Assembly: GCF_003473485.1 (NCBI RefSeq)
Contig: NC_053045.1
Coordinates: 64,109,994 to 64,173,993 of the forward strand
Direction of reading: 5' to 3'
DNA from: Medicago truncatula
Taxonomy: Eukaryota; Streptophyta; Magnoliopsida; Fabales; Fabaceae
DNA: 64,000 nucleotides
The notes under the pieces were generated by a model, which was given only the letters and a program-made list of their open reading frames with translations, searched no databases and had not been told where the DNA came from. Below are positions 5,446 through 55,461 of the stretch, piece after piece (position 1 is the stretch's first letter; each line of letters opens with the position of its first letter). Made by a program: the position numbers and the translations under genes.

Positions 5446-6162
5446 ATGACTTCTCCAATGCTCAAAATTCTGATAGCTATTCTCCTTGCGTCCATATCTT
5501 TTCAAGCATCTGGTAAAATCAGCATTTCCCTGATAAGTTTATCATTTTCAGCCAGAGAATTTACATAGCAATATTTTAAAATGACCGTTTTTTGAGTGTA
5601 AAAACCATATATTTATTTAATTATTATCTATTAGAAGGCAAAGACTAGTGCAATATCTTATTAGATCGTGATGAGTTATTGGAAAATTTCAGGAAAATAT
5701 ATGGAATGGTGCATAGCTGATGGACAGATACCTGACGATGTGCTGCAGAGGGCCATGGATTACGCTTGTCATGTGGATGGAGTAGATTGCAGCAAGATAC
5801 AAGTGAACCAACCTTGTTACCTTCCAAATACTGTGAAGGATCATGCTTCCTATGCCTTCAACGATTACTATCAGAAGTACAAGCACAAGGGAGGCTCTTG
5901 CTATTTCAACTATGCTGCAATAACAAGTGCTTCTGACCCAAGTAAATTATCTCTCTTCATTCAACTCATCTAAAGAGTTATTAATTTCAATGTTTTATCT
6001 TTTCATTTACGGTAAGACATTGAATACCAAAGGGGACAAAAGTCTCTTTGGTACATGTAGACATTATCAATTGATTTTGAAAAATTATCAGTGCAAATGA
6101 TATCTATTCTCTTTGTTTCAATGGCAGGTCATGGATCATGCAAGTTTGAGTATAACCCTTGA
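5446..6162 (+). CDS. Small secreted X8 (CBM43) domain protein, tandem copy 2
   Basis: Exons 5446-5512, 5693-5941 and 6128-6162 (67, 249 and 35 nt, the same as copy 1) encode 116 aa. A signal peptide (MTSPMLKILIAIL) is followed by one X8 domain with six cysteines: EWCIAD, YACHVDGVDC, the PNT motif, HASYAFNDYYQ, GGSCYF and GSCKFEYNP. No GPI tail and no catalytic domain. It is a tandem duplicate of the gene at 2109, with introns shortened on this side; both reading frames and all splice sites are intact, so both copies look functional. The role is inferred as for copy 1: extracellular binding of beta-1,3-glucan. Confidence 0.9.
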
Positions 6163-14122: not shown

Positions 14123-16099
14123 TCAATGTGGAGTTGGAATCAAATACAGGCCATTTCTCCTAGCCGCTGCAGCTCCAAAGGCTTCAGTCATATCCAAGTC
14201 CTCTGGTTTCATTCCATTAGGAAGTTCCCAATTGAAGTGATACAACAATGCAGCCAGAGGAAGCTCAATATTAGCTAAGCCAAGCGAAATTCCCGGACAC
14301 ATTCTTCTTCCTCCCCCAAAAGGCATGTAATCAAAGCTATTATTATTGTTCAATTTATTAAAATCAAAACCAGTACTATCATTAAACCTTTCAGGTATAA
14401 ACTTCTTTGCATCATACCAATGTTTGGGATCTCTTCCAATTGCCCATGCATTTACTATCACGCTAGTCTTTATTGGTATTTCATATCCATCTATGTTGCA
14501 AGCTTCCCTGCATTCTCTTGGAAGCAAAGTAAAAGGTGGGTGTAACCTCATGGTTTCTTTGATCACTGACTTCAAGTAACTAAGTTCATGTAGATCACTC
14601 TCATATATTCTCTTTTTCCCTTTAACAGCTTCTCTTATTTCGGATTGTGCTTTCTTCATCACTCTTGAGTTTTTCATCAACTCTGACATAGCCCACTCTA
14701 TTACTGTTGCTGAAGTATCACTCCCAGCAGCGAACATATCCTGCTCATTTCCACATATACTATGTTAAAACAACTTATCACCTTAACAACAAAAAATCAC
14801 ATGATGCATTAAAAAAAACTCAAATCTTACATAGATACAAGAATTGAAAGAGTTTATTCAGAATCACCCATCATTTCTATCTACGCACCTAGTCCGAAAT
14901 GAGTTTATAAAAAGGTAGCACTCATCACCTTATTGCATTTTCCCCGATATGATGTTTGCATTGTAGGAGACAGTAATAAAGATTAAGGTTTTTAAAAAAA
15001 GGTTATAACTTGTGATTGCAACATCATGGTTTTTTTATACCTCTACAACTTAAACACGACTATATGATATTGCCTTCACTAATCCAAATTCCAGAATTCG
15101 TTTGTGAAGCAATCAATATTGCGACCGACGAACACAATTGAAAGATTTAATACATGTCATGTTTATGATAAATTACAAAGTATAGATCTAGTTTTAACAA
15201 CTAACCCACAGGACGGCTTTGACATTGTCGTCTGTGATAGGGATATCGAAATTGTCACTTTGCTGAACGCGCAAAAGAACATCAACTAGATTTTCACCCT
15301 GTTTGCCATGGATTGAATTTGATTGATGCTCTTTGATAATGCTTTCTAAAATCTTATCCAGCTTCTTTTGCATATTCTGCAATTTAGCTTTCGTCCGAGT
15401 GATAAGATGAATAGGTTTAAATGAAGGGAACAGATCAGCAGGGTCAAACCCACTTGCCATTTCCACTGTTTGCTTGAGCAAACTCAAAAGTTCATCTTCA
15501 TATTTAGATTTTTTACCAAATGCTGCTCTTGAAACAAAGGTACTTACCAAAGAAAAAGCTGTTTTAGTAACATTAAGTGGTAGTGAAAGTGAAACTTGAA
15601 TTGATTGTATGAGCTTTTGCACCTCTTCTTCTCTAATGGAAGAAAAATAATGAACCCTTTTAGCACTAAGAAGCTGTGATGTACATATTTTCCTCATCTG
15701 TCTCCAATAATCACCGTATGGAGCATAAACAATATCTGTTGAATCATATGATAATATTTTAGGAGCTAGGAGTTCTGGCCTCTGAACAAAAGAAAGATCA
15801 TGTGTCTTCATTATCTCTTTGGCCAAATCAGGAGATGAAACAACCACTGCAGAAATTTCACCAAGCTGAAGATACATAAGAGGTCCATATTTGTTGGATA
15901 GATCTCGAAGAGTATGATGTGGAAGTGATCCTCCTAATGCTAGTTGATGCAAGTTTCCTATTAAAGGAAGCTTCCATGGTCCTGGTGGAAGTTTATGAAC
16001 CTCGTTCTTCACTTTGATTTTCTGCTTATAAATCTTTGTTAAACAAAGTATCAAGAAGATGAATGAGGAAATGATGAGGAAGGAAAATTTGAATTCCAT
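14123..16099 (-). CDS. CYP71D: Cytochrome P450, CYP71D subfamily type
   Basis: Two exons on the minus strand, 15206-16099 and 14123-14740, with a GT..AG phase-0 intron after VKAVLW, encode about 503 aa, the normal length. The start MEFKFSFLIISSF was preferred to a Met seven codons upstream because it begins the membrane anchor. Visible P450 landmarks: anchor at residues 4-20, the hinge LPPGPWKLPLIGN, WRQMRK (helix C), the I-helix AAGSDTSATVIEW, the K-helix [13 protein letters not shown], and the heme loop [10 protein letters not shown] with its cysteine ligand. CYP71D members are ER-bound monooxygenases of specialised metabolism (terpenoids, flavonoids, alkaloids); the substrate cannot be read from sequence. 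All key residues are present and the gene looks functional. A broken sister lies 1.5 kb upstream. Confidence 0.92.
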
Positions 16100-16129
16100 G
16101 GCATACAGTGAAATTGGCACTTATGACCT

Positions 16130-17324: not shown

Positions 17325-17672
17325 CATACACCCCGTAAACCCCCACACATAAATGCAACATGTGGCAATGTGAGTTCAAAATAACTACATATCATTTGTT
17401 ACACATTACCAAAATACCCTCCCACATTGGGTGTGTACAAGAGTGGTACGGAAAAAGGATGTCTATCTATATTTTCCTTTATTTTATTGAAGCTCCTCAA
17501 AATTCTAAAATGTGATATTTTCAACTTAAAGTTTTCTTTTTTTTGACTTCCTTATTAACTAGTGTTCCGAGAGCACCGTTGATTCATATTCTTATTGACA
17601 AAAATCTTAACGGCAGAAAACCATCTTTATAGGAGGGACAAGTGCTGACAATGAGTTTTTTGAAGGGAATAA

Positions 17673-19478
17673 TCAAATATATGGAGTTGGAATCAAATAC
17701 AGGTTGTTTCTCCTAGCCACAACAGCTCCAAAGGCTTCAGTCATATCCAAGTCCTCTGGTTTCATTCCATTAGGAAGTTCCCAATTGAAGTGATACAATA
17801 ATGCAGCAAGAGGAAGCTCAATATTAGCTAAGCCAAACAAAATTCCTGGACACATTCTTCTTCCTCCTCCAAAAGGGATGTATTCAAAGTTATTATTATT
17901 ACTATTCACTTTATTAAAATCAAAATATTTACTGTCATGAAACCTCTCAGGTATAAACTTCTCTGCATCATACCAATATTTGGGATCTCTTCACATTGCC
18001 CAAGCATTTACTAACACATTAGTCTTTATTGGTATTTCATATCCACCTATGTTGCATGCTTCCCTGCATTCTCTTATAAGCAAAGTAGCAGGTGGATGTA
18101 ACCTCATAGTTTCTTTGATCACTGAATTCAAGTAACTAAGTTCTTGTAGATCACTCTCATATGTTCTCTTTTTACCTTTAAAGGTTTCTCTTATTTCAGA
18201 TTGTGCCTTCTTCATCACTCTTGGGTTTTTCATCAACTCTGACATTGCCCAGTCTATTGTTCCTGCTGAAGTATCACTTCCGGCACAAACATGTCCTGTT
18301 CAATTCCACATACATTATGTTAAAAAAAGCTTGTGATCATAACAAAATAAACCATATGTTTGCATTGAAGAAAACAATAATATACCAAAAAAAAATTGGC
18401 ACGAGATAAATTATTATTAAAATTTTTACATTTATCCTACACAGGATGTGAACTTGGTTGCTTGAGGTTGTAAGGTCGACCTCTCACCACTACGTTGACA
18501 CAAAAATAGAGATTAACGTTTAAAACAAGGTTATGACTTGTGACGGAAACACAATTATGATTCTCTTAAGTACTAATGATTGTTACGCGATCAATTTTTG
18601 CAACGCGATTGAAAAACTTGATACAGATTAAAGTTTATTAGCTAAGCCATATTACGGCTTTGACATTCTCTTGTGTGATTGGGACCTCGAGATAGCCACT
18701 TTGTTGAACGCGCAAAAGAACATCAACTAAATTTTCATCTTGCATGCCGGCATGGATTGAATTTGTTTGATGCTCGTTGATAATGCTTTCTAAAATTTTA
18801 TCCGACTTCTTCTGCATACTCTGCAATCTAGCTTTAGTCCTAGTAATAAAATGAATAGCTTTGAATGAAGCGAACAAATCAACAACATCGAAACCACTCG
18901 CCATTTCCACTGATTCCTTGAGCAAACATAGAAGTTCATCTTCATATTTAGATTTTTAACCAAACGCCGCTCTTGAAACAAAGGTACTTACCAAAGAGAA
19001 AGCTATTTTAGTAACATCAAGTGGTAGTGAAAGTGAACCTTGAATGGATTGTATAAGCTTTTCTACCTCATCTTCTCTAATGGAAGAAAAAGATTGAACC
19101 CTTTTAGCACTAATATAAGAAGTTCTGATGTACATATTTTCCTCATTTGTCTCCAATAATCACCGTATGGAGCAAAGACAATACCAGTTGAATCATAGGC
19201 TAATATATTAGGAGCAATGAGTTTTGGCCTTTGAACAAAAGCAAGATCACGTGTCTTCAATATCTCTTTGGCTAAATCAGGGGATGAGACAACTATTGTA
19301 GAAATTTCACCTAGCTGAAGATGCATAAGAGGTCCATATTTTTGACAGATTTCGAAGTGTATGGTGTGGAAGTGATTTCGCTTGTTACTTTGAATTTCTA
19401 CTTATAAGTTTTTGCTAACAAAAGGGGCAAGAAGAAGATGAATGAGGAAATGATGAGTAAGGAAGATTTCAATTCCAT
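17673..19478 (-). pseudogene. Broken tandem CYP71D cytochrome P450
   Basis: It has the same exon plan as the gene at 14123 and clear P450 motifs ([29 protein letters not shown]). Damage seen: about 78 nt lost near the N-terminus, removing the proline hinge; a 5 nt insertion after TSELL; AAA to TAA after SRAAFG (near 18956); the intron donor GT changed to CT at 18645-18646; a 1 nt loss in the I-helix (DMF.AGSDTS region, near 18285); and GGA to TGA after NAWAM (near 17991). With at least six independent lesions it cannot make a P450. Identity to the intact copy remains high between lesions, so decay is moderately recent. Confidence 0.92.
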
Positions 19479-19616
19479 GGCATAGACGACTATAGTACAG
19501 TGTGAATTACCACTTTGAAATTGATCTTCTCGCCTACTACCCGTATATACTTTTTTTGGGTGAATTACTTTTTTTTTAGGGGTACTTTTATTTATTTATT
19601 TGATAGCATAATAAAT

Positions 19617-27777: not shown

Positions 27778-28363
27778 TTAGTGTTTTTCCGTTGTATATG
27801 CTAGTAAACTAATTTCATTTTTACGCAGTTTATGATTGTGCAATATTTATTATACCCTGCTCTATGAGAAACTATCATGTTGCTATCTGCATCTAATACA
27901 TTTATAATTGAACAATAAAAGTACATCATTTAACATACTAACGTAGTCGTTGCTTGTTCTATGACTTAATACTCCCTCCGTCCCAAATTGTATGTCACTT
28001 TAGAAAAAATATTTGTCTCAAATTGTATGTCACTTTAGAATACCAATGAAACATTAATGTTACTTTTCCTATTATATCCTTAACTATTTATTACTCTTTC
28101 TTTTTTCAATTCTTTCATTTATCTTTCTCATATCATTTATTAATGATAATTTTGTAAAATAAATCATAATATCTCTTTCCCACACAATATTAATTACACT
28201 TCTTAATATGTGTGAAATGCCCAAAACGTCATACAATTTGGGACGGAGGGAGTATATATTGTTGCATGTATGCATGTATCATGTTTCTATACGCAATTTA
28301 TGATTGTGCAATATTTATTATATCCCATCTACCCAACAAGTCTCTGCGCTGCGGCTACTAATC
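27778..28363 (+). repeat. 586 bp segment, inverted near-identical copy at 43424-44009
   Basis: From ttagtgtttttccgttgtat to gctgcggctactaatc this segment matches the reverse complement of 43424-44009 with no length change; few substitutions were seen (for example two in a 63-codon stretch). A Stowaway-like MITE (27972-28252) sits inside both copies. Direct repeats 'tttatgattgtgcaatattt' flank the MITE region. Confidence 0.9.
27972..28252. mobile_element. Stowaway-like MITE (CTCCCTCCGTCCC ends)
   Basis: The left ctccctccgtcccaaattgt and right caatttgggacggagggag are inverted repeats flanked by TA on both sides, the Tc1/mariner target. It lies within the 586 bp duplicated segment. Confidence 0.88.
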
Positions 28364-30355
28364 ACTATTGTGCAATATTTTTCTTCAATCAACAATAAAT
28401 AGCACATGGAAAACATAAACTAACTTCCCCCTCTTAAGGATAAAATTGTAAAACCAATAGTGATTACAAACAACTTTAATACTCACTCTCTTAAGGAGTA
28501 CAAATATCAACTTTCTTAATTCCGGTGATTTTAGCAAAATGATCTTATATATAGGGACGAAGGTAGTAATTTAAGTTTTTTTATTTTTGATCTTTTATTT
28601 TTTCCGTAGACATTAGTCAAGAAAAATGACTTAATTATTGATTTTTTTTTTTATGATTTATTTCAGACTTGTTTTGGACATTAAAATATGAATTTTTACC
28701 TAAAATCATAAATTTTCGACAGTAGATAGATTAATTAGGAATTTTTTAAGTATAAAAAATTCAAAAAACAAAAGAATGAAAATCCAAATTTATAAATCAA
28801 ATTTTGAGGTGATAGAGACATCTATAAAATTTTGTTTTGCATAAGCATACATGTCAAATTTAGTTCCCAAATTTTATAGGCATGATTAACACGTCATAAA
28901 TAACAGCCTTCTCCCTGAAATTTTAAAGTTTTTTTTTTTGGTACAAAAAATTTAAAGTTTTTAATCGAGTGAAGAATTAATTATAACAGCCTTCATTAAA
29001 ATAAATATTAAATAATTCCTTCGACTTACAATAATTTTTGTATGTGATAATTTCACGCAGATTAAAAAAAGATGATAAATGAAAGATAAAAGAATGATTT
29101 TTTTAGTGATTAACCCTTGTCTACATTATAATTACAGTTATTACAAAGTGAAAATAATAACTTGTAAGCCCCGCTCAAAAATAATAACTTGTAAGTAGTC
29201 TATATTATATCAACAATTTTTCTAGAAATAAAAGTGACAACCTAATATTTTTTTCAATTGTAAAAAAATAGAAAAATGCTAACAAGTGTTTAAGGGTATT
29301 GTTTAAGCATATAAAAATAGCAACTTTTGCATTAAAAATTGTAGGGTTGTGACTTTAACATGTGTTTGATATGTATTTTTAAGACATGATTTTTTTTTGT
29401 GGATTTCTTAAACAATGCCCTTAAAACATTCACATTGGTGAGGTCTTCACCATTTAAGACCTGGTACCTAATAAGTGTCAATGTGGAATATTTTTTTAGG
29501 GTCTTCTATGACCTAGGATCTCACTTAAGAACTCAATGTTTAAGTGGACCCCGCGCATTACATTTTCTTAAAATAATCATTGTCATTGTACTATTGTTTT
29601 TCAATTGCAATTAAATATTATAAAATAGATAATAGTGTTTTAAATAAATAGTTATTGGTGAGACTCATATAGACTTTTTGTTGCAGGGTCTCTATTAGAG
29701 TGGTTGCATACCTATTATGTACTATTATTAAAAAATTACAAAAAAGTGATATGTTCATGTGAAACTCGTTTAAGACCTCCAAATTAAGAGTCTCGTAGGG
29801 CACTTGTTAGAAAGAAAGAAAAAAAAAATGGACAAACCATTTGCGGCCAATGAATAGCTTGCAGTTCCTGCCGAATTGATTATTAAAGATGATAATGAAG
29901 TAGAAATTGGGCTCTCTATGTGGTGACTTTTATACAGAGAGGGTGGAAGAAACGGAGACTTTTTGATGTACACAATCCACGATTTGAGCATACGACCTAT
30001 ACTCAATTTTCCTTTCAATAGAATTGAAATTGAAAATGAAAATCACAAATTTGATGAATCATGTGATTGACTTTAATTAATTAATTAATAATGCTAAACT
30101 GAAGTTAGGTGTCACATGAGACCTCATTATCTCTCCATATTTCTTCACCAAGTAAAACCATTGTTAAAATATTAATGACATATATAAACTTTATAAAGCA
30201 CAATTAATGTGGCACATCAACGCGTTGGTATGTTAGTAGTGCATACCACGTTTTATCATCAAATCTTTACCTTAAATACGTGCATGACATTCTCACAATG
30301 CATCATCAATCATATACCAATTACACAACCAAACATTGCTAGCTAAAGAAACAAC
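28364..30355. other. Spacer upstream of the peroxidase
   Basis: No gene. Around 29279-29432 are imperfect inverted repeats (gtgtttaagggtattgttta against taaacaatgcccttaaaaca), a probable small MITE. The promoter of the peroxidase should lie in the last few hundred bases; an AT-rich box 'accttaaatacg' is about 85 bases before the ATG. Confidence 0.45.
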
Positions 30356-32605: not shown

Positions 32606-33216
32606 TTGAACTTAAGAACCGATACCGTTGAGTCTTAATTCGTAACATCCGATTTCTCAAGTTCAGAAGTTACGATCAGATCTACTTTTACAGATATATT
32701 TATCGAGACTTGCTATTTAGTGCGAAGAAATACAGTGCGGACTGGCCACGAAACATGGGCTTAACGGTGACAAATTGTTATTAACATTTTAAAAGTAAAT
32801 AAAAATCAAGCAGATCAAAAGCAAGTATATGATCCAATGGTTATAATTTGTTCGTTGAATTTCCCACAACACAAGTCGCACTATTAAGCTTTTTCCATAT
32901 TTATCAGGCACCAAACATGTACTACAAACCATCACATACACGATCAATCTTCCATTTTCATCATCCACACCAAAATTCAATTATTTTTTTTCTAGAAAAA
33001 AAAGTGTCTCAAATAATCATTAAATGATTGCTAAAAGATTTCTACGTTCACATGACAACAAAGAACAAATAAAACATCTTTAAACCATTTACATGGTTGA
33101 TTCTCATTTTTTCCAGTTGAACTACTATTTTCAAGGGTAAGGGTCAAGTCTCGGACCAGGATCATGTCCTAACTCCCGATCCATTCAGCAACTTGATTAC
33201 TTAATTTTCATTCCAT
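32606..33216. other. Spacer, no gene
   Basis: AT-rich, no recognisable coding or repeat content. Confidence 0.45.
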
Positions 33217-33888
33217 TTGTTGACGTTTCTAAATTATAGTTTAGTTTTTTTATTTTATTTTGATATTTGTAGTTATGGTTGAACACCCTCTTGATCCAAA
33301 TTCATACAACGTTGATGCTTCCGTTGAATTGAAACTAAGCATTATTGAGTCTTTTACTGATGTGAAACCAAACATTGTTGATTCTTCCATTGATGTGGAA
33401 CCAAATGATGTTGAGGTTTCCATTGATTTGAAGTCAAATGTTGATTTTAAGGAGATCATTGTTAAGCCCGATGGTTCTAAATTTGTTGATAATGAAGTTG
33501 ATATATATAGAGAAATACTTTTTAAAGAGATGATTTGATTAATAAGGCTCATCATCAAGCATCAACGGCCATATTTACTTTAATTATTGACAAATCAAAT
33601 CATGGTGATGGACGAAGACCACCGAGTTTGTGAAATGGGTGGTCTGTACCAAGGAAACAAGAAGAACGTGAAGCAAGACGCATGGTCAAGGAACTGTGAA
33701 TGCTCATTTAGGTTATGTGGTTATTTGTTGAAATCAAATGAATGATCGGTGAGTATTGTTAATGGAGTGCACAACCATTTGATGAAGTCAAAGTTAGAAG
33801 GTCGCCGTCTTACTCTTAGATTAAATGAGTAATTGGAGTTTGTTATTGACATGATATGGAATATGGTCCAACCAAAGAATATCTTAAT
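33217..33888 (+). pseudogene. FAR1/MULE-type zinc-finger fragment A
   Basis: An open stretch from the ATG at 33275 (MVEHPLDPNSYNVDASVEL...) has repeated 'ID/TDVKPN'-like words. After decay, a frame at about 33690-33880 reads CECSFRLCGYLL, SVSIVNGVHNHL and SKLEGRRLTLRLNE, then MVQPKNIL. The C..C...H.H pattern with 'HNH' fits the FAR1-type (WRKY-GCM1) DNA-binding domain found in MULE transposases and in FAR1/FHY3-like plant proteins. Two in-frame stops and at least one frameshift lie in that part. A second, more decayed copy lies at 40301-40866. The fragment stops exactly where a TPK channel fragment begins. Confidence 0.7.
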
Positions 33889-34170
33889 GATCTTGTTCCC
33901 ATTAGCACTATAGAAAAATTTCTTGCTTGCATTTATGTCTTCACTGACATGGCTCTTGGTGGCTTAATTCTTAGCAATGCAGCAGATTACATCATCGAAA
34001 AACAGTAAATATTTCTTGTTGAATCCATATGCAAAGTTGAAAATTTTGGTCTAGAAGAGGTTGCTAAACTAAGAAAAGCAAATACAATTTTGTGCTCGCA
34101 ACATCCACTTTTTTTGTGCTCATGATTGCAGATTTTGGTTGTAAATCTTTAGATTTTGTGGGTGCACTCA
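33889..34170 (+). pseudogene. Fragment of the TPK two-pore K+ channel gene
   Basis: Closely matches 54208-54510 of the intact channel exon: from GDLVP through ACIYVFT.MALGGLIL, AADYI.EKQ and ENFGL.EVAK to FFVLMIA and SLDFVGAL. It lacks both selectivity filters, has GAA to TAA after EKQ, and carries small deletions, so it encodes nothing useful. The source region is within one exon, so the copy mechanism (DNA or RNA) cannot be told. It is joined head-on to the FAR1-type fragment. Confidence 0.9.

Positions 34171-35540: not shown

Positions 35541-35588
<48 letters not shown>
35541..35588. repeat. (AT)n microsatellite, left side of a TIR element
   Basis: About 24 AT units. A matching (AT)n at 36431-36464 lies just beyond the element's other end. 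Confidence 0.95.
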
Positions 35589-35590
<2 letters not shown>

Positions 35591-35592
<2 letters not shown>

Positions 35593-36427
35593 CAGAATCC
35601 GTTGACACCAGGTGTCAACGGATTCGTTGACACCAAATCTTAAACGTTCATTTCTTTTAATCTAAAGGTCAATAATCATTTATCAAAATCTTAATGTGGG
35701 CATTTAATATTTCATATCTCCTTTCCTAAAAATCCTCTTGTTTTCTAAATGATCCTAAGCATACACCTAATGCTTCTCCTGTCTTCATTCTTTCGTTATT
35801 ATGCTATCTATGGTTTTCATTTATCTCCTTCACCACTAGGTACACTTGCTGAGATGTTTCATCAATCTAATTTGATGCTTTTAGAAATTAAAAGTCCTCT
35901 TTCAATTAGTGATAGAGTTGAATTGAAAAATATATTGAAATACATATGTTTAACCTAATATCCTTTTACAAATCAAATTTTTTATCTCTACCATCGTTCC
36001 TTAGAAATTCCGAAACAATTTACTTTTTGTTTTATTTTGAGGGGAAAACAATTTGTTCTTTCTCCCAAATATAATAATATATAAGATATAAGTTGCACTC
36101 CAATAACTAACGAAAGAAACAAAAAGCTTGTGAATGAATGGAAATCGACAATCAAAATTTGAATCCTACAATTGTTTTCTCGAGAATCTCAACAAGATGG
36201 GAATTAAAGAAATAAAACGCAGAACTTCATAGCCTTCGTTGAGTTTTCTCGAGCGTCAGGTATATGCTTAGGTTTTTAGGAAATAAGAGGATTTTTAGGA
36301 AAGGAGATATGAAATACTGAATGTCCACATTAAGATTTTGATAAATGATTATTGACCTTTAGATTAAATTAAATGAACGTTTAAGATTTGGTGTCAACGA
36401 ATCCGTTGACACCTGGTGTCGATGGAT

Positions 36428-36430
<3 letters not shown>
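35591..36430. mobile_element. TIR element (Mutator-like) with ~180 bp arms inserted in an AT tract
   Basis: The arms contain 'gacaccaggtgtcaacggat' (left) and its complement near the right end. They extend inward through 'aatcttaaacgttcattt' and 'gtcaataatcatttatcaaa' to about 35770 and 36250. (AT)n flanks both sides, so a target duplication cannot be seen. The interior (35770-36250) includes an open stretch SPLGTLAEMFHQSNLMLLEI followed by SDRVELKNILKYI that looks exon-like; it might be a captured gene piece, source unknown. The element ends about 107 bp before the BURP pseudogene ATG. Confidence 0.7.
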
Positions 36431-36467: not shown

Positions 36468-37868
36468 AAAACTAGCCTTTGTATTATTTTTCCTTGACTG
36501 CTCCATCGATAGCAACCCTAACCCTAAATATTTAACATGAACAAACCACTCAACTTTATCTGCCTCTTTCTTCTCTTCTCATCTCTCACTGTAAGAATCT
36601 CTTTTTTTTCATTGATTTCAATTTTTTCTATTGTTGTTTCATGCTCATCATTATTATATCTGAAATGTGTTTTCATCCATGCAGGTAATTTCCGTCGGAG
36701 ATGTGGTCACCGGAGACAAAAACCCATTCACACCAAAAGCATTTGTGACTCGGTATTGGGATAAAGAGATCACCAACGGAAGCAGCGACCTTTGCGAAGC
36801 TAGCTTCAGGCAACATGCTATCCACACGCTTGCCGGAATTTTGCTCGGCCGCCAACCTCCTCTGCCTCCCGGAAGTAGCCCAGAGTCTTGAAAAGCACGA
36901 AGGTGATGAAAATTTCAAGGCTTACAGCGATAAGAATTTCACCAACTACGGAACGAGTCTACCCGGTGGACACGACTCGTTCAAAAACTACTCGGACGGA
37001 GACTACTCTGACGGAGAGGTGAATGATTTCTGTCGCTACAGCCGAAACTCTGCCGGCCATAAAGAAACTTTCACCAACTACACGCCACAAACGCCAACGT
37101 CGCTGATCAAAGCTTTCACACTTACGGCGCTGGAGCCACCGGCGGCAGGGACGAGTTCAAGCAATGCACAACTGAAGCCAACGTTCCAAACGAAGTTTTC
37201 ACTTCTTACTCCGATAACGCCAACGGTAGAACTCAATCCTTCAACTCTTACACCGAAAACGGTAACGGCGGTGACCAATCTTTCACTTCCTATGGTAAAA
37301 ACGGTAATGGCCACACTGAAGAATTCACAAACTACGGAACAAGCTCCAACACTGTTGGATCGGATTTTTCAAACTATGCCGAAACCTCAAACTCCGGTAA
37401 CGACAGTTTCAAAGGTTACAGCGTAGATATGAATAACCCGACCAATACTTTCAGTAACTATGCTAACGGAGGTAACGGTGCAATTCAAACGTTTTCAACT
37501 TACCGTGAAGATGCCAACGTTGGTGCTGATTCTTTTACTAGCTATGCAAAAACCGCAAATGCCGCGAAAATTGGTTTTGATAACTATGGAAAATCCTTCA
37601 ATGGAGGAACTGATACATTCACAAGCTATGCTAAAACATCAAGTGGTGAAACAAAGGTTGATTTTAAGGGTTATGGTGTTGACAACACTTTCAAAGAGTA
37701 TTCTAAAGAAGGTGTTTCTTTTGCAAAGTACACAAACGCGAGTTTGAGTTTAAATGCTTCTATGGAAATGAAAAAGAGCACGGTGAGTGGTAGTTTGGTC
37801 AAAACATCGGTTGAACCGGGTAAGTTTTTTCGGGAAAACATGTTGAAAGAAGTGGTAGTAATGCCTAT

Positions 37869-39434
37869 ACGTATGGCTTTGAATAAGGAAAAAGAAGGAG
37901 TAAATAGTCAATTACCCCCCTGAAATTGTAACTTTCGTCAAAAACTCCCCTGAATTTTGCAAAATGTCAAAAACCCCCCTGAAATTGTCAAGCGTCTGTC
38001 AATTACCCCCCTCCGTTAATTTCCTCCATCCAACATGCTGATGTGGCCGTTAACTGCCACGTGGCACTGACACATGGTCAAAAAAGTCATGCCACGTCAT
38101 AGGGGGGTAATTGACTATATTTTTTTTTTTTTTGAAAAAAATCTGATTTTTTTTTTTAATCTGATTTTTTTTTCTTTTCATAATTAACATTTGTGCCACC
38201 CACTGAACATGCAAATACCCCCCTGAAATTAAACATTTATGTGCAAATACCACCCTCAAATTTAAAATTTATGTAGCAAATATCCTCTCAAATTTATAAC
38301 TTATATGCAAACATCCTCTCCAAATGTAAAACTTATATGCAAATTACACCTTGAATCATAAAACTTTAATGGTTAAGGAAAACTTATTTTTAATCTATAA
38401 TTTACTATATCTCTAATAACAATAAAAAAGGAAAAAAATCACATCTTTAAAATAACATGGAAACAGAGATGCATATGCATCAAAATGTTGTGTTTTGAGA
38501 GCAAATAATTGCAAATCCTACGGAAAAAAAAAAATTAACAAGGATTTGACCAAGACATATATATATAATATATGAAGGTAAATTTGGTAGTTATGGCAAA
38601 GTGTAATTACAGCGGGAAGTTAAATTTTCTCCAACAGCAAAAGTGTAATGGCAATAATCTGTCATCATTTCGAGCAACACCCTTAGGCCTTAACAGATAG
38701 AGAACTAGTGGTGTGTTCCGTGGGAACCCCTGAAGGAGCATAGCTAGAAATATTCCCAAGCTCTTGGCCAAAAAACAATTCTACGTGAGCCTACACACAA
38801 CCATCCATTCATGCACCAATAACCTCTCCCCCTTTGTTTTATTTTAAAGATGTGATTTTTTTTCTTTTTTATTGTTATTAGAGATATAGTATATTATAGA
38901 TTAAGAATAAGTTTTACTTAACCATTAAAGTTTTATGATTCAAGGTGTAATTTGCATATAAGTTTTACATTTGGAGAGGATGTTTGCATATAAGTTATAA
39001 ATTTGAGGGGATATTTGCTACATAAATTTTAAATTTGAGGGTGGTATTTGCACATAAATGTTTAATTTCAGGGGGGTATTTGCACATAAATGTTTAATTT
39101 CAGGGGGGTATTTGCATGTTCAGTGGGTGACACAAATGTTAATTATGAAAAGAAAGTTACAATTTCAGGGGGTAATTGACTATTTACTCGAAAAAGAAGA
39201 GAAAACTTATCTTAGTCTTTTTATCCAGGAAATCCAATGTCTCAAGTCAGATTTTGACAAGTGTACTTTTAGATTTACCCCTAGAAGTGGTAATAAGGCT
39301 GCTGATAGTTTGGCCCAATTAGCCCATACAGACCCTGATATGGTCTGGATAGAGGAGGTGCCACCAGCAAGTTATTATTTTCATGATCTTATAAGCTAAT
39401 AATATTTAGTTTTGATTTCAAAAAAAAAAAAAAA
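37869..39434 (+). mobile_element. 5'-truncated LINE inserted in the BURP gene
   Basis: A perfect 9 bp duplication aatgcctat flanks it (37860-37868 and 39435-39443) and a poly(A) run ends it (39420-39434). With the nested element removed, the LINE reads RMALNKEKEE, then KTYLSLFIQEIQCLKSDF, FTPRSGNKAADSLAQLAH and MVWIEEVPPASYY, the C-terminal RNase H-like end of a plant non-LTR retrotransposon ORF2, closing with a stop before the tail. Only the last ~280 bp of the LINE is present. Confidence 0.9.
37898..39189. mobile_element. Nested Mutator-like TIR element inside the LINE
   Basis: Ends gagtaaatagtcaattaccc and its inverted copy at 39189, with a 10 bp duplication gaaaaagaag at 37888-37897 and 39190-39199. 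It has a compound structure. The left 37902-38118 piece has its own inverted ends (atagtcaattaccccc / ggggggtaattgactat). An inner palindrome has ~300 bp arms (38171-38470 against 38840-39154). A ~32 bp unit is doubled at 39046-39110 on the right arm only. No transposase. Confidence 0.85.
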
Positions 39435-40300
39435 AATGCCTATGCCTGATATCAGAGATAAATTACCTAAAAGGTCGTTTTTACCCCAGAGTATTCTTGC
39501 GAAATTACCTTTTTCTACTTCAAAGATTGATGAGATGAAGGGGTGGGTTATTTAATGCTTCGGATAATGATTCAATGGAAAAGATGATGAGAGATTCATT
39601 GGGTGAATGTGAGAGAGTTCCTGCTAGAGGTGAGACAAAAAAATGTGTGGGGTCTATTGAGGATATGATCGACTTTGCAGCTTCGGTTTTGGGTCGAAAT
39701 GTTGTGGTTCGGACTACTGAGAATGTAAATGGGTCGAAGAAGGATCTTATGGTGGGTCATGTTAGTGGGATTAATAATGGTGGAAAAATGACCCGAACTG
39801 TTTCGTGTCATCAGAGCTTGTTTCAGTATTTGCTTTATTATTGTCACTCGGTTCCTAAGGTTAGGGTTTATCAAGCAGAGCTACTTGACCCGAAAATTAA
39901 GGATAAAATTAATCAAGGTGTTGCTGTTTGTCATTTGGATACATCAGATTGGAGTCCTACTCATGGTGCTTTTGTGTCTCTTGGGTCGGGTCCGGGACAA
40001 ATTGAGGTATGTCACTGGATTTTTGAGAATGATATGTCATGGGCAGTTGCTGATTAAGAAGATTGTGAAGAATGAGAAAAAGATGAATGGTTCAATAGGT
40101 AGAAATCAACCGGTTGTTTTTCTCTACTAAGAAATTCAACAGTTTTGAATTTTAAGTTTAAGTAATTTAATGTTTTATCTTTCAATTTTTAGTTTGATAG
40201 AATAGTTAATGTATGGTATTACATTTTGAATTTGGAAGAAGGTATCTTATTATATTTATACATTCATTTGGAGACCTGATTACTCTATGTTCATTTTATT

Positions 40301-40866
40301 TTGTTGATGTTTCTAAATTATAATATGGTTTTTATTTTATTTTGATATTTTTAGTTATGGTTGAACACACTTTTGATCCAAATTTAAACAATGTCGATGT
40401 TTTCATTGATGTGGAATGTTGAGTCTTTCATTGATGTGAAGCCAATTGATGTTTAAGTTTTCGTTGGTTTAAAATCTAGATTTTAAAGAAAACATTGTTA
40501 ATTCCGATGTTTCTAAACTTGTTGATAATGAAGTTGATATGACGAAATACTTTTTTAAAATGTGAAATGTAAACATTTAGAGATGACATTTTGATTAATT
40601 GGACTCGTCTCCAAGCCCTTTAATTATAGACAAATTTAATCATGGTAGGAGAAGAAGACCATCATAGTTAGTCTTGGGTTGTTAAATAGGATGTGTGTAC
40701 CATGGAATTTAGAACAAAGTGAAGCAAGAAGACATGTGATCAAAGAAATGTGAATGTTCGTTTATGTTTGAGGTTATTTGTTGAAATCAAATGAATGACC
40801 AATGAGTATTGTTAATATAGTTCACAATCAAAGTTAGAAGCTCACATTCTTATTTGAGTACTTGTT
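40301..40866 (+). pseudogene. FAR1/MULE-type fragment B, strongly decayed
   Basis: Parallel to 33217-33888: the same 'atggttgaacacac.tttgatc' start (about 40355), 'gttgataatgaagttgatat', and 'gaggttatttgttgaaatca aatgaatgacc' (about 40771-40800). It has many more stops and gaps than copy A and lacks the TPK piece. It sits 250 bp after the BURP pseudogene. Confidence 0.65.
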
Positions 40867-43247: not shown

Positions 43248-43423
43248 GTGGACAAAGTTGTGGAGGTTAAGAGTACCAAAAAACATTTATGTTTTCACGT
43301 GGAGGATAGCGAGGGGGTGTTTTCCGAAGAGAGAAAAACTCATAAGACGAGGGGTTCAATGTCAAATTTCATGTCCTTTTAGAGAAGAGGAAAATGAAAG
43401 TGATTGACATATATGCCAAGGTG
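43248..43423 (+). mobile_element. LINE fragment (zf-RVT region)
   Basis: Translated, this gives WTKLWRLRVPKNIYVFTWRI then ARGCFPKREKLIRRGVQC and ISCPF, the zinc-binding domain that follows reverse transcriptase in plant LINEs (W..LW.L..P....F.WR....P...L..RG..C). It stops abruptly at the start of the 586 bp inverted duplicate. Confidence 0.75.
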
Positions 43424-44009
43424 GATTAGTAGCCGCAGCGCAGAGACTTGTTGGGTAGATGGGATATAATAAATATTGCACAATCATAAATTGCGTATAG
43501 AAACATGATACATGCATACATGCAACAATATATACTTCCTCCGTCCCAAATTGTATGACGTTTTGGGCATTTCACACATATTAAGAAGTGTAATTAATAT
43601 TGTGTGGGAAAGAGATATTATGATTTATTTTACAAAATTATCATTAATAAATGATATGGGAAAGATAAATGAAAGAATTGAAAAAAGAAAGAGTAATAAA
43701 TAGTTAAGGATATAATAGGAAAAGTAACATTAATGTTTCATTGGTATTCTAAAGTGACATACAATTTGAGACAAATATTTTTTCTAAAGTGACATACAAT
43801 TTGGGACGGAGGGAGTATTAAGTCATAGAACAAGCAACGACTACGTTAGTATGTTAAATGATGTACTTTTATTGTTCAATTATAAATGTATTAGATGCAG
43901 ATAGCAACATGATAGTTTCTCATAGAGCAGGGTATAATAAATATTGCACAATCATAAACTGCGTAAAAATGAAATTAGTTTACTAGCATATACAACGGAA
44001 AAACACTAA
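43424..44009 (-). repeat. 586 bp segment, inverted copy of 27778-28363
   Basis: Starts gattagtagccgcagcgcag and ends ...ggaaaaacactaa; the reverse complement of 27778-28363 with equal length. It contains its own Stowaway-like MITE (43535-43815). It abuts a LINE fragment on the left, so this copy is likely the inserted one; direction of copying is inference. Confidence 0.9.
43535..43815. mobile_element. Stowaway-like MITE inside the inverted duplicate
   Basis: Ends cttcctccgtcccaaattgt and caatttgggacggagggag, flanked by TA. The ortholog of the MITE at 27972, moved with its host segment. Confidence 0.85.
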
Positions 44010-44186
44010 CAAAATTTTGGAAGAAACTAGCAGAATATAGCAGCAATCTAGAGAAAGGGAAATTTGTAAAAGAAAAAACATCTTCATAACTGTGTATTAA
44101 AGCACGAGTTAGTGTATTAAAGCAATTAAAAAACATCATTATAAATGTATCAATGTTATGCAATATAAAGTTCATAAATAAAACAT

Positions 44187-44396
44187 GGTTAAACTGCAGT
44201 TTTAACCCCCTAACTTTCACAATGGTGCGATTTTGACCCCTTATTAAAAAAAAATTAAATTTTAAACCCTTATGTTTTAGCCCCTTTGCAAAACAGACCT
44301 TTTGGTCAATTTTGACCAGGTCAACGCGGAGGTGTCATGCCACATGTGTATTTTTCCATTTATTTTTATTCAAAAAGTCAATTGTGTAATGCTTGG

Positions 44397-44427
<31 letters not shown>

Positions 44428-45515
44428 GGTGTTGGCACGTGAGAGCTTCCAACGGCTAAAAACTCCAACCTTAAAAACCCCCAATTCTTCAACCCTTCTT
44501 CTTCATATGTTCTTCTTGATTTTATTCCACCATAACCCAACCTTCATCTGTTCTTCTCCATAAACCGAACCTTCATCTGTTCTTATTCAACCATCTTATT
44601 CGACCATTCTTCTCCTTTCTTTCACCACTTTCTCAGATTTTAAAAATGTAGTCTCAAATATTAGTTAATATGATATATTAACAAAATTACACCCACCGTT
44701 CCATATTCTGAAATGATTAAAAAATGAGCTATTGATTCTTCATCTGGTTAGTCAAACGAAAAACTATGAATTGCAAAATATGAAAGTGTATGTGTTGGAC
44801 AGTAGCCAATAGAATGCATCACCACTACCTTACTACTTCCTTAAGTTCTATAATAATGTATCATCATTACTAATATTTGAGTTATCCTGCGATTTACTCT
44901 CCATGACTCTAATCTCCAGAACGGTGGTGGCAACCCTTTCTAGCGGTGGTTAGCATGTTTGTGGGAAGTTGTGGTTGAAGTAGCGGCAACCTCTATATGG
45001 GTTGTGGAAGCAATTGAAACGTCGGGTGGGGGAGTGCGGCGTTGGAGTAGTGACGAGTGGTGAACGTCCTTCCCTCCTTCTCTATTGTCCTTCTTCCTTC
45101 CTTCTCCCACTCTCTGTTTTAAATTTTTTTATCTCTTCATTTTGCTTCCCTTTTCCTAATCTGATTAGTTTGATTTCAAAATTGTTTGTATACATTTAAA
45201 AAATCAAGGCTTGTGCAAATTGACAAATAAATTGAAATTGAGTCTGATAAATGGTTTCTTGATAAATCAATTTTCAAGGCAAGATACTACAAGCACTATA
45301 ACAATACAGTATAGTACATAAACATTTTTGGAAGGAGATGAACAATCACCTGGAATTCGATTTGTGATGAACAGATGAAGGTTTATGGAGAAGAACAAAT
45401 GAAAGTTGGGTTATGGTGGAATAAAATCAAGAAGAACAGATGAAGAAGAAGGGTTGAAGAATTGGGGGTTTTTAAGGTTGGAGTTTTTAGCCGTTGGAAG
45501 CTCTCACGTGCTAAC

Positions 45516-45578
<63 letters not shown>

Positions 45579-45787
45579 CCAAGCATTACACAATTGGTTT
45601 TTTGAATAAAAATAAATGGGAAAATACACATGTGGCATGACAGCTCCGCGTTGACCTGGTCAAAATTGACCAAAAAGTCTGTTTTGCAAAGGGGCTAAAA
45701 CATAAGGGTTTAAAATTTAATTTTTTTTAATAGGGGGTCAAAATCGCACCATTGTGAAAGTTAGGGGGTTAAAACTGCAGTTTAGCC
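44187..45787. mobile_element. Non-autonomous Mutator-like element with perfect 9 bp duplication
   Basis: The left end ggttaaactgcagttttaac is mirrored at the right (...aaaactgcagtttagcc). Exact 9 bp flanks ataaaacat lie at 44178-44186 and 45788-45796. The arms are over 400 bp each (to about 44585 and from about 45353). They include an (AT)n tract whose length differs between arms (44407-44425 against 45521-45576). No transposase in the interior; ORFs with IYIYIY runs are just the microsatellite translated. Confidence 0.93.
45521..45576. repeat. (AT)n microsatellite within a MULE arm
   Basis: About 28 AT units. The equivalent position in the other arm (44407-44425) has only about 9, so it expanded after insertion. 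Confidence 0.95.
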
Positions 45788-45796
45788 ATAAAACAT

Positions 45797-52797: not shown

Positions 52798-53814
52798 GTA
52801 TATCCAATCGTTTTCTTACACTACTTCTTCTTGTTCCTTTTAAAATTTCAATCGATATTATACTATTTCAATAATGTATTGTTGATATTGATTTATAGCC
52901 TATAACTATTACTCTATATTTTCTTTCTAATTAATCTGTAAACACATTAGTTTCTAACGTTGAATTTCAAATTTAATGGTAGTTGTAATTGTTAATGTTA
53001 ATTTGATCTACCAATTCATTTATATTGAATGAGACTCTGCTACTTCTTAGTTATTTGATTTCTTCTGCTATTTTTTTCATGAGAGCTTCATGGTTCTGAC
53101 TTCAGAACATGGTAGAAGAAAACTAAGCGTCTCTTTGGCTGAGTGCTCGCACTTTTTAACACTCACTCTAAAATACATGTGGGTCCTACTGTTATGGAAC
53201 TGGCCCCATGTAAAGTGGTGGGGCCACATGTATTTCACTCAATAATAAGAGAGTGAGTGGTGTAGGGTTGGGACCTTTCCGGTGTATTCCTCTCATGTAT
53301 GAATTGATTTATTTGAGTTTATTTACGGGTAAAACCACTTGTCAGGCAGTTTGAGAGAGTTTATGGAAACTACTTATGACATGTCTGTGAGTTGATTTTA
53401 GTTGATTTGCATAAAAACTTCATTCCATTGTTGTTGTCATCAAAAGAAACTCTACTACTACTTATCAGTTTTTTGATTTCTAGTACTATTTTCTTGAAGA
53501 GCTCTAAGCTTCCGAACATTACAAAAGAAAACTAAGGGTTTATCTGGATTGGTTTATTTGACCTTATTTACTTGAACACTTGTGGTCGTGGGACTATTTG
53601 AGAGAGCTTATGAGATGTCTATAAGTTGTTTTGAACTCGTTTCAATAAACTCTCCGCAATGACTTATTAAAATAGTTTATAACATGGAAATATACTGATT
53701 ACATTTTATATTTTCTTATAGAAATAGCTTATACATAAGCATTTATATAATAAGGGCATAATTAGTCTGTTTATCCAAACAGGGCCTAAGCATCTTAGAA
53801 CTTCAACTTTTCAG
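52798..53814 (+). other. Probable 5'UTR intron of TPK
   Basis: Donor cttgtcag|gtatatcc and acceptor cttttcag|gtaacgaa lie at good positions upstream of the ATG. Inside are two MITE-like repeats: near 53130-53280 (acatgtgggtcc / gggccacatgt) and 53527-53790 (actaagggttta / caaacagggcctaag). Inferred from splice consensus only. Confidence 0.5.
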
Positions 53815-53844
53815 GTAACGAATGAAGCATTAGGAAGTAAGTTG

Positions 53845-55461
53845 ATGGGCAGTGATGAAACTCAACAGCTATTGCTTTCAGAGTCAAGGGAACATTCTCT
53901 TCTCAATGAGAAGAATGACCTTCTTCAGAGAAGAAAACCGCGGTGTGGCGGCACTTCAGAGACAGATATCAATCTGCAGCAAGAACAGAATGGTGTCCTC
54001 CAATCCCCTTTATCTCCCCAATGTATAACTGAAAAACAAGAAGCAGAATTCAAGTTCAGGCTAGTGTTCTTGTGTTTAGCAGCATACCTAGGCACAGGTA
54101 CCTTATGTTTCTATCTAACAAGTTACCAAATTGAAGGCATAAAAACAAATGGATTTCTTGATGCCCTTTATTTCTGTGTTGTGACAATGACTACTGTTGG
54201 ATATGGAGATCTTGTTCCAAATAGCACTATAGCAAAACTCCTTGCATGCATTTATGTCTTCACTGGCATGGCTCTTGGTGGCTTAATTCTTAGCAAAGCA
54301 GCAGATTACATTGTTGAGAAACAGGAAATATTTCTTGCTGAGTCCATGTGCAAGGCTGAAAATTTTGGTCTACAAGAGGTTGCTAAAGAACTTGGAACTA
54401 AGAAAAGCAAATACAAGTTTGTGCTTGCAGTAGCCACTTTTTTTGTGCTCATGATTGCAGGAACTGTTTTTCTGTATTTTATTGAGAATCTAGATTTTGT
54501 GGATGCACTCTATTGTGTTTGTTCCACGGTCACAACTTTAGGTTATGGGGATAAGAGCTTCTCGACTGCTGCTGGTAGGATTTTTGCCGTGTTTTGGATA
54601 TTGAGCAGCACCATTTGCTTGGCTCAGTCTTTTGCTTATCTTGCTGAACTCTATACTGAAGATAGACAAAGATCACTGGCAAAAATGGTTCTCACCCGAA
54701 AATTATCACTCAGTGATCTTGAGGCAGCAGATCTTGACGGAGACAAAGCTGTCAGGTACTAAAATACACTAATAGATGAACTATTTTAACAGATACTTCA
54801 CAATTGCAGGGATATACTTTCCAATTCGCAATTATCAGAGATTATTTTGACTGATGCTTATAGCTTCGAGAACCAATTTACAAATTCACTCATAAGTTAT
54901 GAAGCACAGACACGATACGTGTATCTGATACCGCGATACGTCAATAATTGAAAAATATAAGATACGATACATTTAAGATACATATATAAAAAAATTAAAA
55001 TAAAATGGAAATTAAAATAAGTAATATCGGAATTTTTTATTTTTATTTTTTAATTAAAAAATTTCAGATATTCCTTCAATACGTATCAACCAACGGTGTA
55101 TCGGTGCTTCATAGCTCATAAGAAACGACAGTGCTAAGCTTATATTATAAATGTATGTATTCTTTTTATTTATATCATTTGCACCGGGAGATGCAGTGAG
55201 TTCATATTTATAACACCTCATCACTAGTGTTGCATTGATAGATTACTCCAATAATTTAGCTACACTAAGCAGTTAAATCCTCGTATTATTGATCAACAAT
55301 TTTTTCCCAGTGCTGCAGAGTTTGTTGTATACAAGTTGAAGGAAATGGGAAAGATCAACCAAGAAGATATTTCAGCAGTGATGGAGAGTTTTAGAAAACT
55401 AGACTGTGATCAATCAGGAACTCTGACTGAAGCTGATATCAGAAATTCTGAACTATCTTAA
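53845..55461 (+). CDS. TPK1: Two-pore potassium channel, TPK1-type
   Basis: Exons 53845-54755 and 55311-55461 (GT..AG) encode 353 aa; the start is the ATG at 53845. Four membrane spans and two pore loops are visible: TMTTVGYGDLVPN (filter 1) and TVTTLGYGDKSFS (filter 2). TM segments include FRLVFLCLAAYLGTGTLCF, LLACIYVFTGMALGGLIL, FVLAVATFFVLMIAGTVF and IFAVFWILSSTICLAQSF. Two C-terminal EF-hands follow, DLDGDKAVSAAE (split by the intron) and DCDQSGTLTEAD. TPK1 channels sit in the vacuole membrane and release K+ under Ca2+ control. The usual N-terminal 14-3-3 site (RSxSxP) is not evident: only RRKPRCGGTS is seen. A pseudogene fragment of this gene lies at 33889. Confidence 0.93.
54896..55115. 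mobile_element. MITE-like inverted repeat in the TPK intron
   Basis: The left ttatgaagcacagacacgat and right atcggtgcttcatagct form imperfect inverted ends around an AT-rich middle; the same wording occurs near 300-420. Intronic, so splicing removes it. Confidence 0.55.

What the first reader, a model, noticed from the sequence alone, without database searches (positions are those of the whole stretch)
36537..40057. Layered fossil record: BURP gene, split by a LINE, split by a MULE-like element
The order of events can be read. The LINE has a perfect 9 bp duplication and poly(A) tail in the BURP exon. A TIR element with a 10 bp duplication interrupts the LINE reading frame, which resumes exactly after it. 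Three BURP frameshifts lie outside the insertions. It is a clean relative-dating case in a cell-wall gene.
Basis: partly seen in the sequence, partly recalled or inferred. Interest (0 to 1): 0.7.

Follow-up and report, generated by a model that had tools for sequence, protein, structure and literature searches.

The report
Dead plant gene, two nested transposons
A duplicated cell-wall gene of what is very probably barrel medic was killed by small indels and by a retrotransposon that itself received a second transposon; the kind is ordinary, but its tail end appears to have been published as a working drought-induced gene (MtBURP25).

Summary
Window 36537-40057 is a PG1-beta-type BURP pseudogene, 9-12% diverged in DNA from an intact 630-aa paralog on contig C5 that carries the empty site: the paralog aligns through the insertion point with exactly 9 bp, the target duplication, overlapping. 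The insert is the last ~260 bp of an L1-type LINE (RNase H end, poly(A), 9-bp TSD). Inside it sits a 1,292-bp non-autonomous Mutator-like element with a 10-bp TSD. Of 28 family loci examined, 25 have exact 9-12-bp TSDs; cross-paired flanks match in 1 of 702. Nesting fixes duplication, then LINE, then MULE. It does not date the three BURP frameshifts, so the full order cannot be read.

MtBURP25 is therefore very probably the 3' fragment of this pseudogene, and the intact paralog is MtBURP33. Biologically ordinary; useful as an annotation correction.

The parts
36537..36590 (+). BURP (PG1-beta type) exon 1, signal-peptide part
   Evidence: aligned to intact paralog L034 with the same exon/intron boundary
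36591..36684 (+). retained intron (GT...AG), so the copy is not a retrocopy
   Evidence: aligned to the intron of L034
36685..37868 (+). 5' part of BURP exon 2 (FxxY repeat region), ending in the left LINE target duplication 37860-37868
   Evidence: 88% identical to L034/L039 over 36778-37868
36777..36778 (+). frameshift 1: 53-bp deletion relative to L034
37081..37084 (+). frameshift 2: 2-bp insertion (placement approximate)
37869..37897 (+). first 29 bp of the 5'-truncated LINE; its last 10 bp (37888-37897) are the left TIR-element target duplication
37898..39189 (.). non-autonomous Mutator-like element, 1292 bp, long TIRs; right arm lacks 243-263 bp at about 39152 relative to four family copies
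39190..39434 (+). rest of the LINE: right element target duplication 39190-39199, ORF2 RNase H end with stop, short 3' UTR, poly(A)
   Evidence: RVT_3 E 2.1e-7; 9 of 11 relatives show a like stop and A-rich 3' end
39435..40057 (+). right LINE target duplication 39435-39443 and 3' part of BURP exon 2 to the original stop
   Evidence: BURP PF03181 E 2.8e-51; 91% identical to L034
39541..39548 (+). frameshift 3: 4-bp tandem duplication (placement approximate)
39436..40057 (+). gene model matching published MtBURP25/Medtr4g133840.1: exons 39436-39542 and 39592-40057, 49-bp pseudo-intron 39543-39591
   Evidence: 190 aa, 20.9979 kDa, pI 6.99 against 190 aa, 20.9981 kDa, 6.99 in PMC4829796 Table 1

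Best explanation
This is a dead gene with a layered history. (1) A PG1-beta-type BURP gene was duplicated as DNA, intron included, giving the intact C5 copy (MtBURP33) and this C4 copy; Ks is 0.26. (2) The C4 copy stayed under at least partial constraint for much of that time. (3) The end of an L1-type LINE RNA was reverse transcribed into exon 2 by target-primed insertion, giving 5' truncation, a poly(A) tail and a 9-bp duplication. (4) A non-autonomous Mutator-like element transposed into that LINE fragment (10-bp duplication) and, on arrival or later, lost about 245 bp of its right arm. Three indels outside the inserts also broke the BURP frame, at unknown times. A gene finder later called the 3' remnant a gene, starting at the ATG in the LINE target duplication and stepping over the last frameshift with a 49-bp pseudo-intron; this is very probably the published MtBURP25. 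Shown: homology, empty site, TSDs, nesting, element family, match to the published model. Inferred: the insertion mechanisms (from the anatomy), constraint before death, absolute times, and that the remnant makes no working protein.
For: Paralog L034/L039 contiguous through the LINE site with a 9-bp overlap equal to the TSD. Intact 630-aa frame in L034, whose mass and pI match MtBURP33. LINE: RVT_3; 11 relatives at 70-82% DNA identity over parts; 7 of 7 ORFs scanned from 5 of these 11 loci hit RVT_3 and/or zf-RVT; like stop and A-rich 3' end shown in 9 of 11. Element: 25 of 28 loci with exact 9-12-bp TSDs; 25 of 27 own against 1 of 702 cross pairs; TIR arms of 537-563 aligned bases in 5 of 7 other copies, 452 and 281 in two. 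Element young: terminal branch 0.0123, nearest copy 98.56%. Constraint until late: 0 stops in 603 codons; pair dN 0.066, dS 0.262. MtBURP25: of 17 two-exon 190-aa models the best is 0.2 Da off, the next 9 Da off; of 9 C4 BURP matches this is the only one outside 33.79-34.37 Mb.
Against: Relaxed constraint on this copy is only suggestive: polarised syn/nonsyn 37/45 here against 38/25 in L034, Fisher p 0.093, 32 changes ambiguous. Outgroup L036 gave an impossible negative dS branch. No close LINE relative was found (best 78%), so the LINE cannot be dated directly. LINE contiguity across the element rests on few residues. Only 30 of the 63 other BURP matches were cut out and compared. The paper reports MtBURP25 expression, highest in leaf and raised by drought, which argues against a silent locus, though not for a working protein. 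Species identity rests on the MtBURP33 and MtBURP25 matches, not on a record title.
Confidence: 0.93

Rival explanations
1. The insert works as an intron: the split gene is spliced and still encodes a PG1-beta protein.
For: The flanks are in frame with each other across the LINE target, and there are 0 nonsense codons in 603.
Against: Three frameshifts lie outside the insert, two of them upstream; paralogs L034, L029, L032 and L036 have long open frames without an intron there.
Confidence: 0.02
2. The 3' fragment (MtBURP25) is a real, selected short gene, transcribed from LINE- or MULE-supplied sequence and drought-responsive.
For: Reported leaf expression and drought induction (PMC4829796); 4 of 4 CH pairs of the BURP domain kept; lower nonsynonymous share in the 3' part (15 syn/12 nonsyn against 22/33 in the 5' part).
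Against: It needs a 49-bp intron that removes residues present in the intact paralog; no signal peptide listed, unlike MtBURP33; the 5'/3' difference is not significant (p 0.24); primers and probes could cross-react with the 91%-identical paralog (not tested; primer table not seen).
Confidence: 0.07
3. Assembly artefact (mis-joined repeats or false indels).
For: Repetitive elements are involved; reads were not available here.
Against: Two perfect TSDs, a family-wide TSD pattern, and a published protein of the same mass whose chromosome-4 position (47.42) differs from this contig's (64.15 Mb), so it probably comes from an earlier assembly and already needed the same way round frameshift 3 (inference).
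Confidence: 0.02

Closest known systems
MtBURP33 / Medtr5g034320.1 (PG1-beta-like BURP gene)
   Same: intron at the same place, signal peptide, FxxY repeats, BURP domain; 88-91% DNA identity in exon 2
   Different: intact 630-aa frame, no LINE or MULE; carries the empty site
Plant L1-type LINEs (RT, zf-RVT, RNase H; the class name and RT part are recalled)
   Same: RNase H end related to 11 genomic relatives, several with zf-RVT; like stop and A-rich 3' end in 9 of 11
   Different: only the last ~260 bp present; nearest relative 78% identical over 150 bp
Non-autonomous long-TIR Mutator-like elements (features from passages of PMC3310237)
   Same: 9-10-bp TSDs, TIRs up to 563 bp, multicopy, 1.25-1.69 kb
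   Different: many arms hold an inward copy of the terminus about 227 bp in; the window copy lost about 245 bp of one arm
MuTAnT (PMC4486113, first of four parts of the text read)
   Same: Mutator-like family of M. truncatula
   Different: mostly 200-300 bp, targets TA microsatellites, different TIR: its 16-base mask has 1 match with 3 mismatches in the window, elsewhere, 0.43 expected by chance

Membership tests
BURP, PG1-beta subfamily | C-terminal BURP domain with four CH pairs (CH pattern recalled) | tested here: met
   PF03181 E 2.8e-51; 4 of 4 CH pairs kept
BURP, PG1-beta subfamily | 14-aa repeat segment between signal peptide and BURP domain | tested here: met
   repeats spaced 84 bp and multiples of 42 bp, F..Y units in translation; definition from a passage of PMC4829796
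functional PG1-beta gene | uninterrupted frame | tested here: not met
   three frameshifts and a 1.57-kb insert
L1-type LINE insertion | ORF2 C-terminal domain related to RT-type elements | tested here: met
   RVT_3 in the window; relatives with zf-RVT and RVT_3
L1-type LINE insertion | poly(A) end, TSD, 5' truncation | tested here: met
L1-type LINE insertion | reverse transcriptase domain | tested here: inconclusive
   outside the truncated piece; only C-terminal ORFs of relatives were scanned
Mutator-like element (non-autonomous) | 9-11-bp TSD | tested here: met
   10 bp here; of 28 loci 20 exact of 10 bp, 4 of 9, 1 of 12 in a TTA repeat, 2 with one mismatch, 1 without a right end
Mutator-like element (non-autonomous) | long TIRs (100-500 bp) | tested here: met
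   281-563 aligned bases at 96.6-99.3% in 7 other copies; 285 at 97.9% in the window copy
Mutator-like element (non-autonomous) | shared TIR with an autonomous mudrA-bearing element | not tested
   the TIR pattern search did not complete

The most novel reading that the evidence does not exclude
The remnant is not silent: the LINE/MULE insertion gave the 3' BURP fragment its own transcription start, and the resulting drought-induced RNA, 91% identical to this part of MtBURP33, helps lower MtBURP33 (the paper reports MtBURP25 up and MtBURP33 down under drought).
Probability: 0.06. Interest if true: 0.65.

Novelty: new member of a known kind. Interest (0 to 1): 0.28.

Why it matters
It is a cleanly documented case of gene death with an empty site in a paralog, and it gives a young Mutator-like family usable for dating. 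More practically, a gene in the published M. truncatula BURP family, reported as drought-induced, is very probably the tail of a pseudogene. Its expression data should be rechecked for cross-reaction with the intact paralog, or reinterpreted as transcription of a pseudogene.

Tried and rejected
Rejected: insert as intron (frameshifts outside it; paralogs uninterrupted). Rejected: BURP copy as a retrocopy (intron retained). Not supported: a segmental duplication with long flanks (at E 1e-5 the window and 14 kb around the paralog share the gene and four short matches of 48-62 bp). Given up: dating the LINE by its relatives (best 78%). Outgroup L036 gave a negative dS branch and was not used for the argument. 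Of 28 element loci, L071 had no right end and was left out of the tree and the flank control (27 used); L061 and L069 have a largely different core (core scores 140 and 79 against 324-370 for the rest) but were kept. Literature: searches for context and 54 for the gene names; one search gave nothing relevant. Genome searches for the upstream foldback and for the 40265-40830 repeat did not complete, so both stay unexplained.

Full report
Setting. The window lies at C4:64109994-64173993 of a 429.9-Mb genome in 42 contigs. The match of a paralog to a published M. truncatula protein (below) identifies it as very probably Medicago truncatula; the record itself is unnamed, so this is an inference.

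The gene. A BURP domain is found in the 3' piece (PF03181, E 2.8e-51); the four other BURP pieces scanned hit no family. A genome scan gave 64 BURP matches, 9 of them on C4; the one in the window is the only C4 match outside 33.79-34.37 Mb. Of the 30 BURP loci cut out (30 of the 63 other matches), L034 (C5:14777418) is by far the nearest: 91.3% over the 3' piece and 87.9% over most of the 5' piece; the next, L032, has 74.9% over the 3' piece. L034 has an intron shared with the window copy and an intact 630-aa frame. Its computed mass and pI, 68.7646 kDa and 8.57, match MtBURP33/Medtr5g034320.1 in PMC4829796 Table 1 (630 aa, 68.7653, 8.57).

The empty site. In BLAST, window 36778-37868 matches L039 4380-5462, and window 39435-40219 matches L039 5454-6245. 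The overlap 5454-5462 is 9 bp, the length of the proposed target duplication.

The LINE. Between the two AATGCCTAT copies lie 29 bp, the TIR element, the second element TSD copy, then 235 bp ending in A's. The piece encodes an RNase H-type domain end (RVT_3, E 2.1e-7). Besides the window's own, the genome search gave 11 relatives, 70-82% identical over parts of the query. Seven ORFs from five of these loci were scanned and 7 of 7 hit RVT_3, zf-RVT or both. A like stop position and A-rich 3' end were shown in 9 of 11 (L051 and L053 were not caught by the motif used). Translated, ungapped matches of 5 of 11 relatives (L045, L046, L047, L049, L053) run across the element's insertion point, with at most 9 residues upstream of it; nucleotide alignments (9 relatives tried) were gapped there or did not reach far upstream. 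The statement that the LINE frame resumes exactly is therefore supported but not proven by relatives; the TSD is the stronger evidence.

The TIR element. 37898-39189, 10-bp TSD. A search with the left arm scored 40 of 1,223 candidates; these 40 matches fall into 28 places, all of which were read (8 fetched, 20). A search with the core gave 42 matches. Of the 28 places, 27 have both ends (1,250-1,685 bp): 20 have exact 10-bp TSDs, 4 have 9 bp, 1 has 12 bp in a TTA repeat, 2 have one mismatch; 1 lacks a right end. Own flank pairs match exactly in 25 of 27, cross pairs in 1 of 702. In the 7 other copies first compared, the TIR arms align over 537-563 bases in five, 452 and 281 in two. The window copy is shorter because its right arm lacks 243, 249, 263 and 246 bp at 39152 relative to L004, L008, L055 and L059, while it has 31-33 extra bp near 39043-39072, a tandem 32-bp unit. 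By TSD length and long TIRs this is a non-autonomous Mutator-like family (features from passages of PMC3310237). A transposase-bearing relative was not found because that search did not complete.

Order and time. Nesting gives duplication, LINE, element. Ks between the paralogs is 0.262 and Ka 0.066 over 603 codons. At the rate implied by Table 2 of PMC4829796 (passage; about 6.1e-9 per site per year, my back-calculation) the duplication is near 21 My. The element's terminal branch is 0.0123, with 10 private changes in 1,254 columns, about 2 My at that rate; this is roughly an upper value for its insertion, since it includes time in an unsampled source. No nonsense codon in 603, with 2.65% of random changes giving a stop, bounds neutral divergence since death at 0.0625 per site (95%), about 10 My. 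The window branch has a higher dN/dS than L034 with outgroups L029 (0.41 against 0.11), L032 (0.31 against 0.19) and L033 (0.50 against 0.08, 356 codons); with L036 the dS split is impossible (negative) and the window value is low, 0.07. Polarised counts are suggestive only (p 0.093). The frameshifts cannot be ordered against the inserts.

The published gene. PMC4829796 (sections 15 and 21 read; other passages) lists MtBURP25/Medtr4g133840.1: chromosome 4, position 47.42, 190 aa, 20.9981 kDa, pI 6.99, no signal peptide. I enumerated 190-aa models with an ATG between 37000 and 40000, one GT or GC...AG intron and the stop at 40057: 17 models, 4 within 50 Da, one within 1 Da (20.9979 kDa, pI 6.99); no single-exon model of that length was printed. 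The matching model starts at 39436, inside the right LINE target duplication, and has a 49-bp intron at 39543-39591 that spans frameshift 3. In the intact paralog the corresponding bases are coding. I conclude that MtBURP25 is very probably the pseudogene's 3' fragment. The paper reports it as highest in leaves and raised by drought, MtBURP33 as lowered. Whether that is pseudogene transcription or cross-reaction cannot be told here. A search for Medtr4g133840, MTR_4g133840, MtBURP25 and Medtr5g034320 in the held library gave 2 papers, one of which holds MtBURP25. In that paper the word 'pseudogene' occurs once, in the reference list.

Verdict. Real, well supported, ordinary in kind; the annotation correction is the part worth passing on.

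Noticed in passing
35588-36430: A foldback element flanked on both sides by long (TA)n sits about 75-110 bp upstream of the BURP ATG; its arms, TA runs included, match over 216 bp at 91%. It resembles TA-microsatellite-targeting Mutator-like elements but does not carry the MuTAnT TIR mask.
   Followed up: partly
37898-38124, and family copies among L002-L008, L054-L073: Many arms of the TIR element contain an inward-facing copy of the terminus about 227 bp in, as if a smaller TIR unit were built into each arm.
   Followed up: partly
27778-28378 and 43409-44009: Inverted pair, 603 bp, 98.8% identical: a recent repeat on both sides of the BURP locus.
   Followed up: no
33191-33774 and 40274-40827: Direct repeat in two pieces (83% and 74%) starting about where BURP paralogy ends on the 3' side; nature unknown.
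   Followed up: no
33889-34131 and 54208-54460: A fragment 87% identical to part of a potassium-channel-like ORF at 53728-54762 (name from reading, no family search); looks like a partial duplicate.
   Followed up: no
14123-16120 and 17638-19484: A P450-like gene and a tandem copy 82-93% identical in pieces; no ORF of 130 aa or more is listed for the second copy, so it may be broken (name from reading, no family search).
   Followed up: no
44185-45789: Another inverted repeat (arms 95-97%) with a (TA)28 run at 45520-45576.
   Followed up: no
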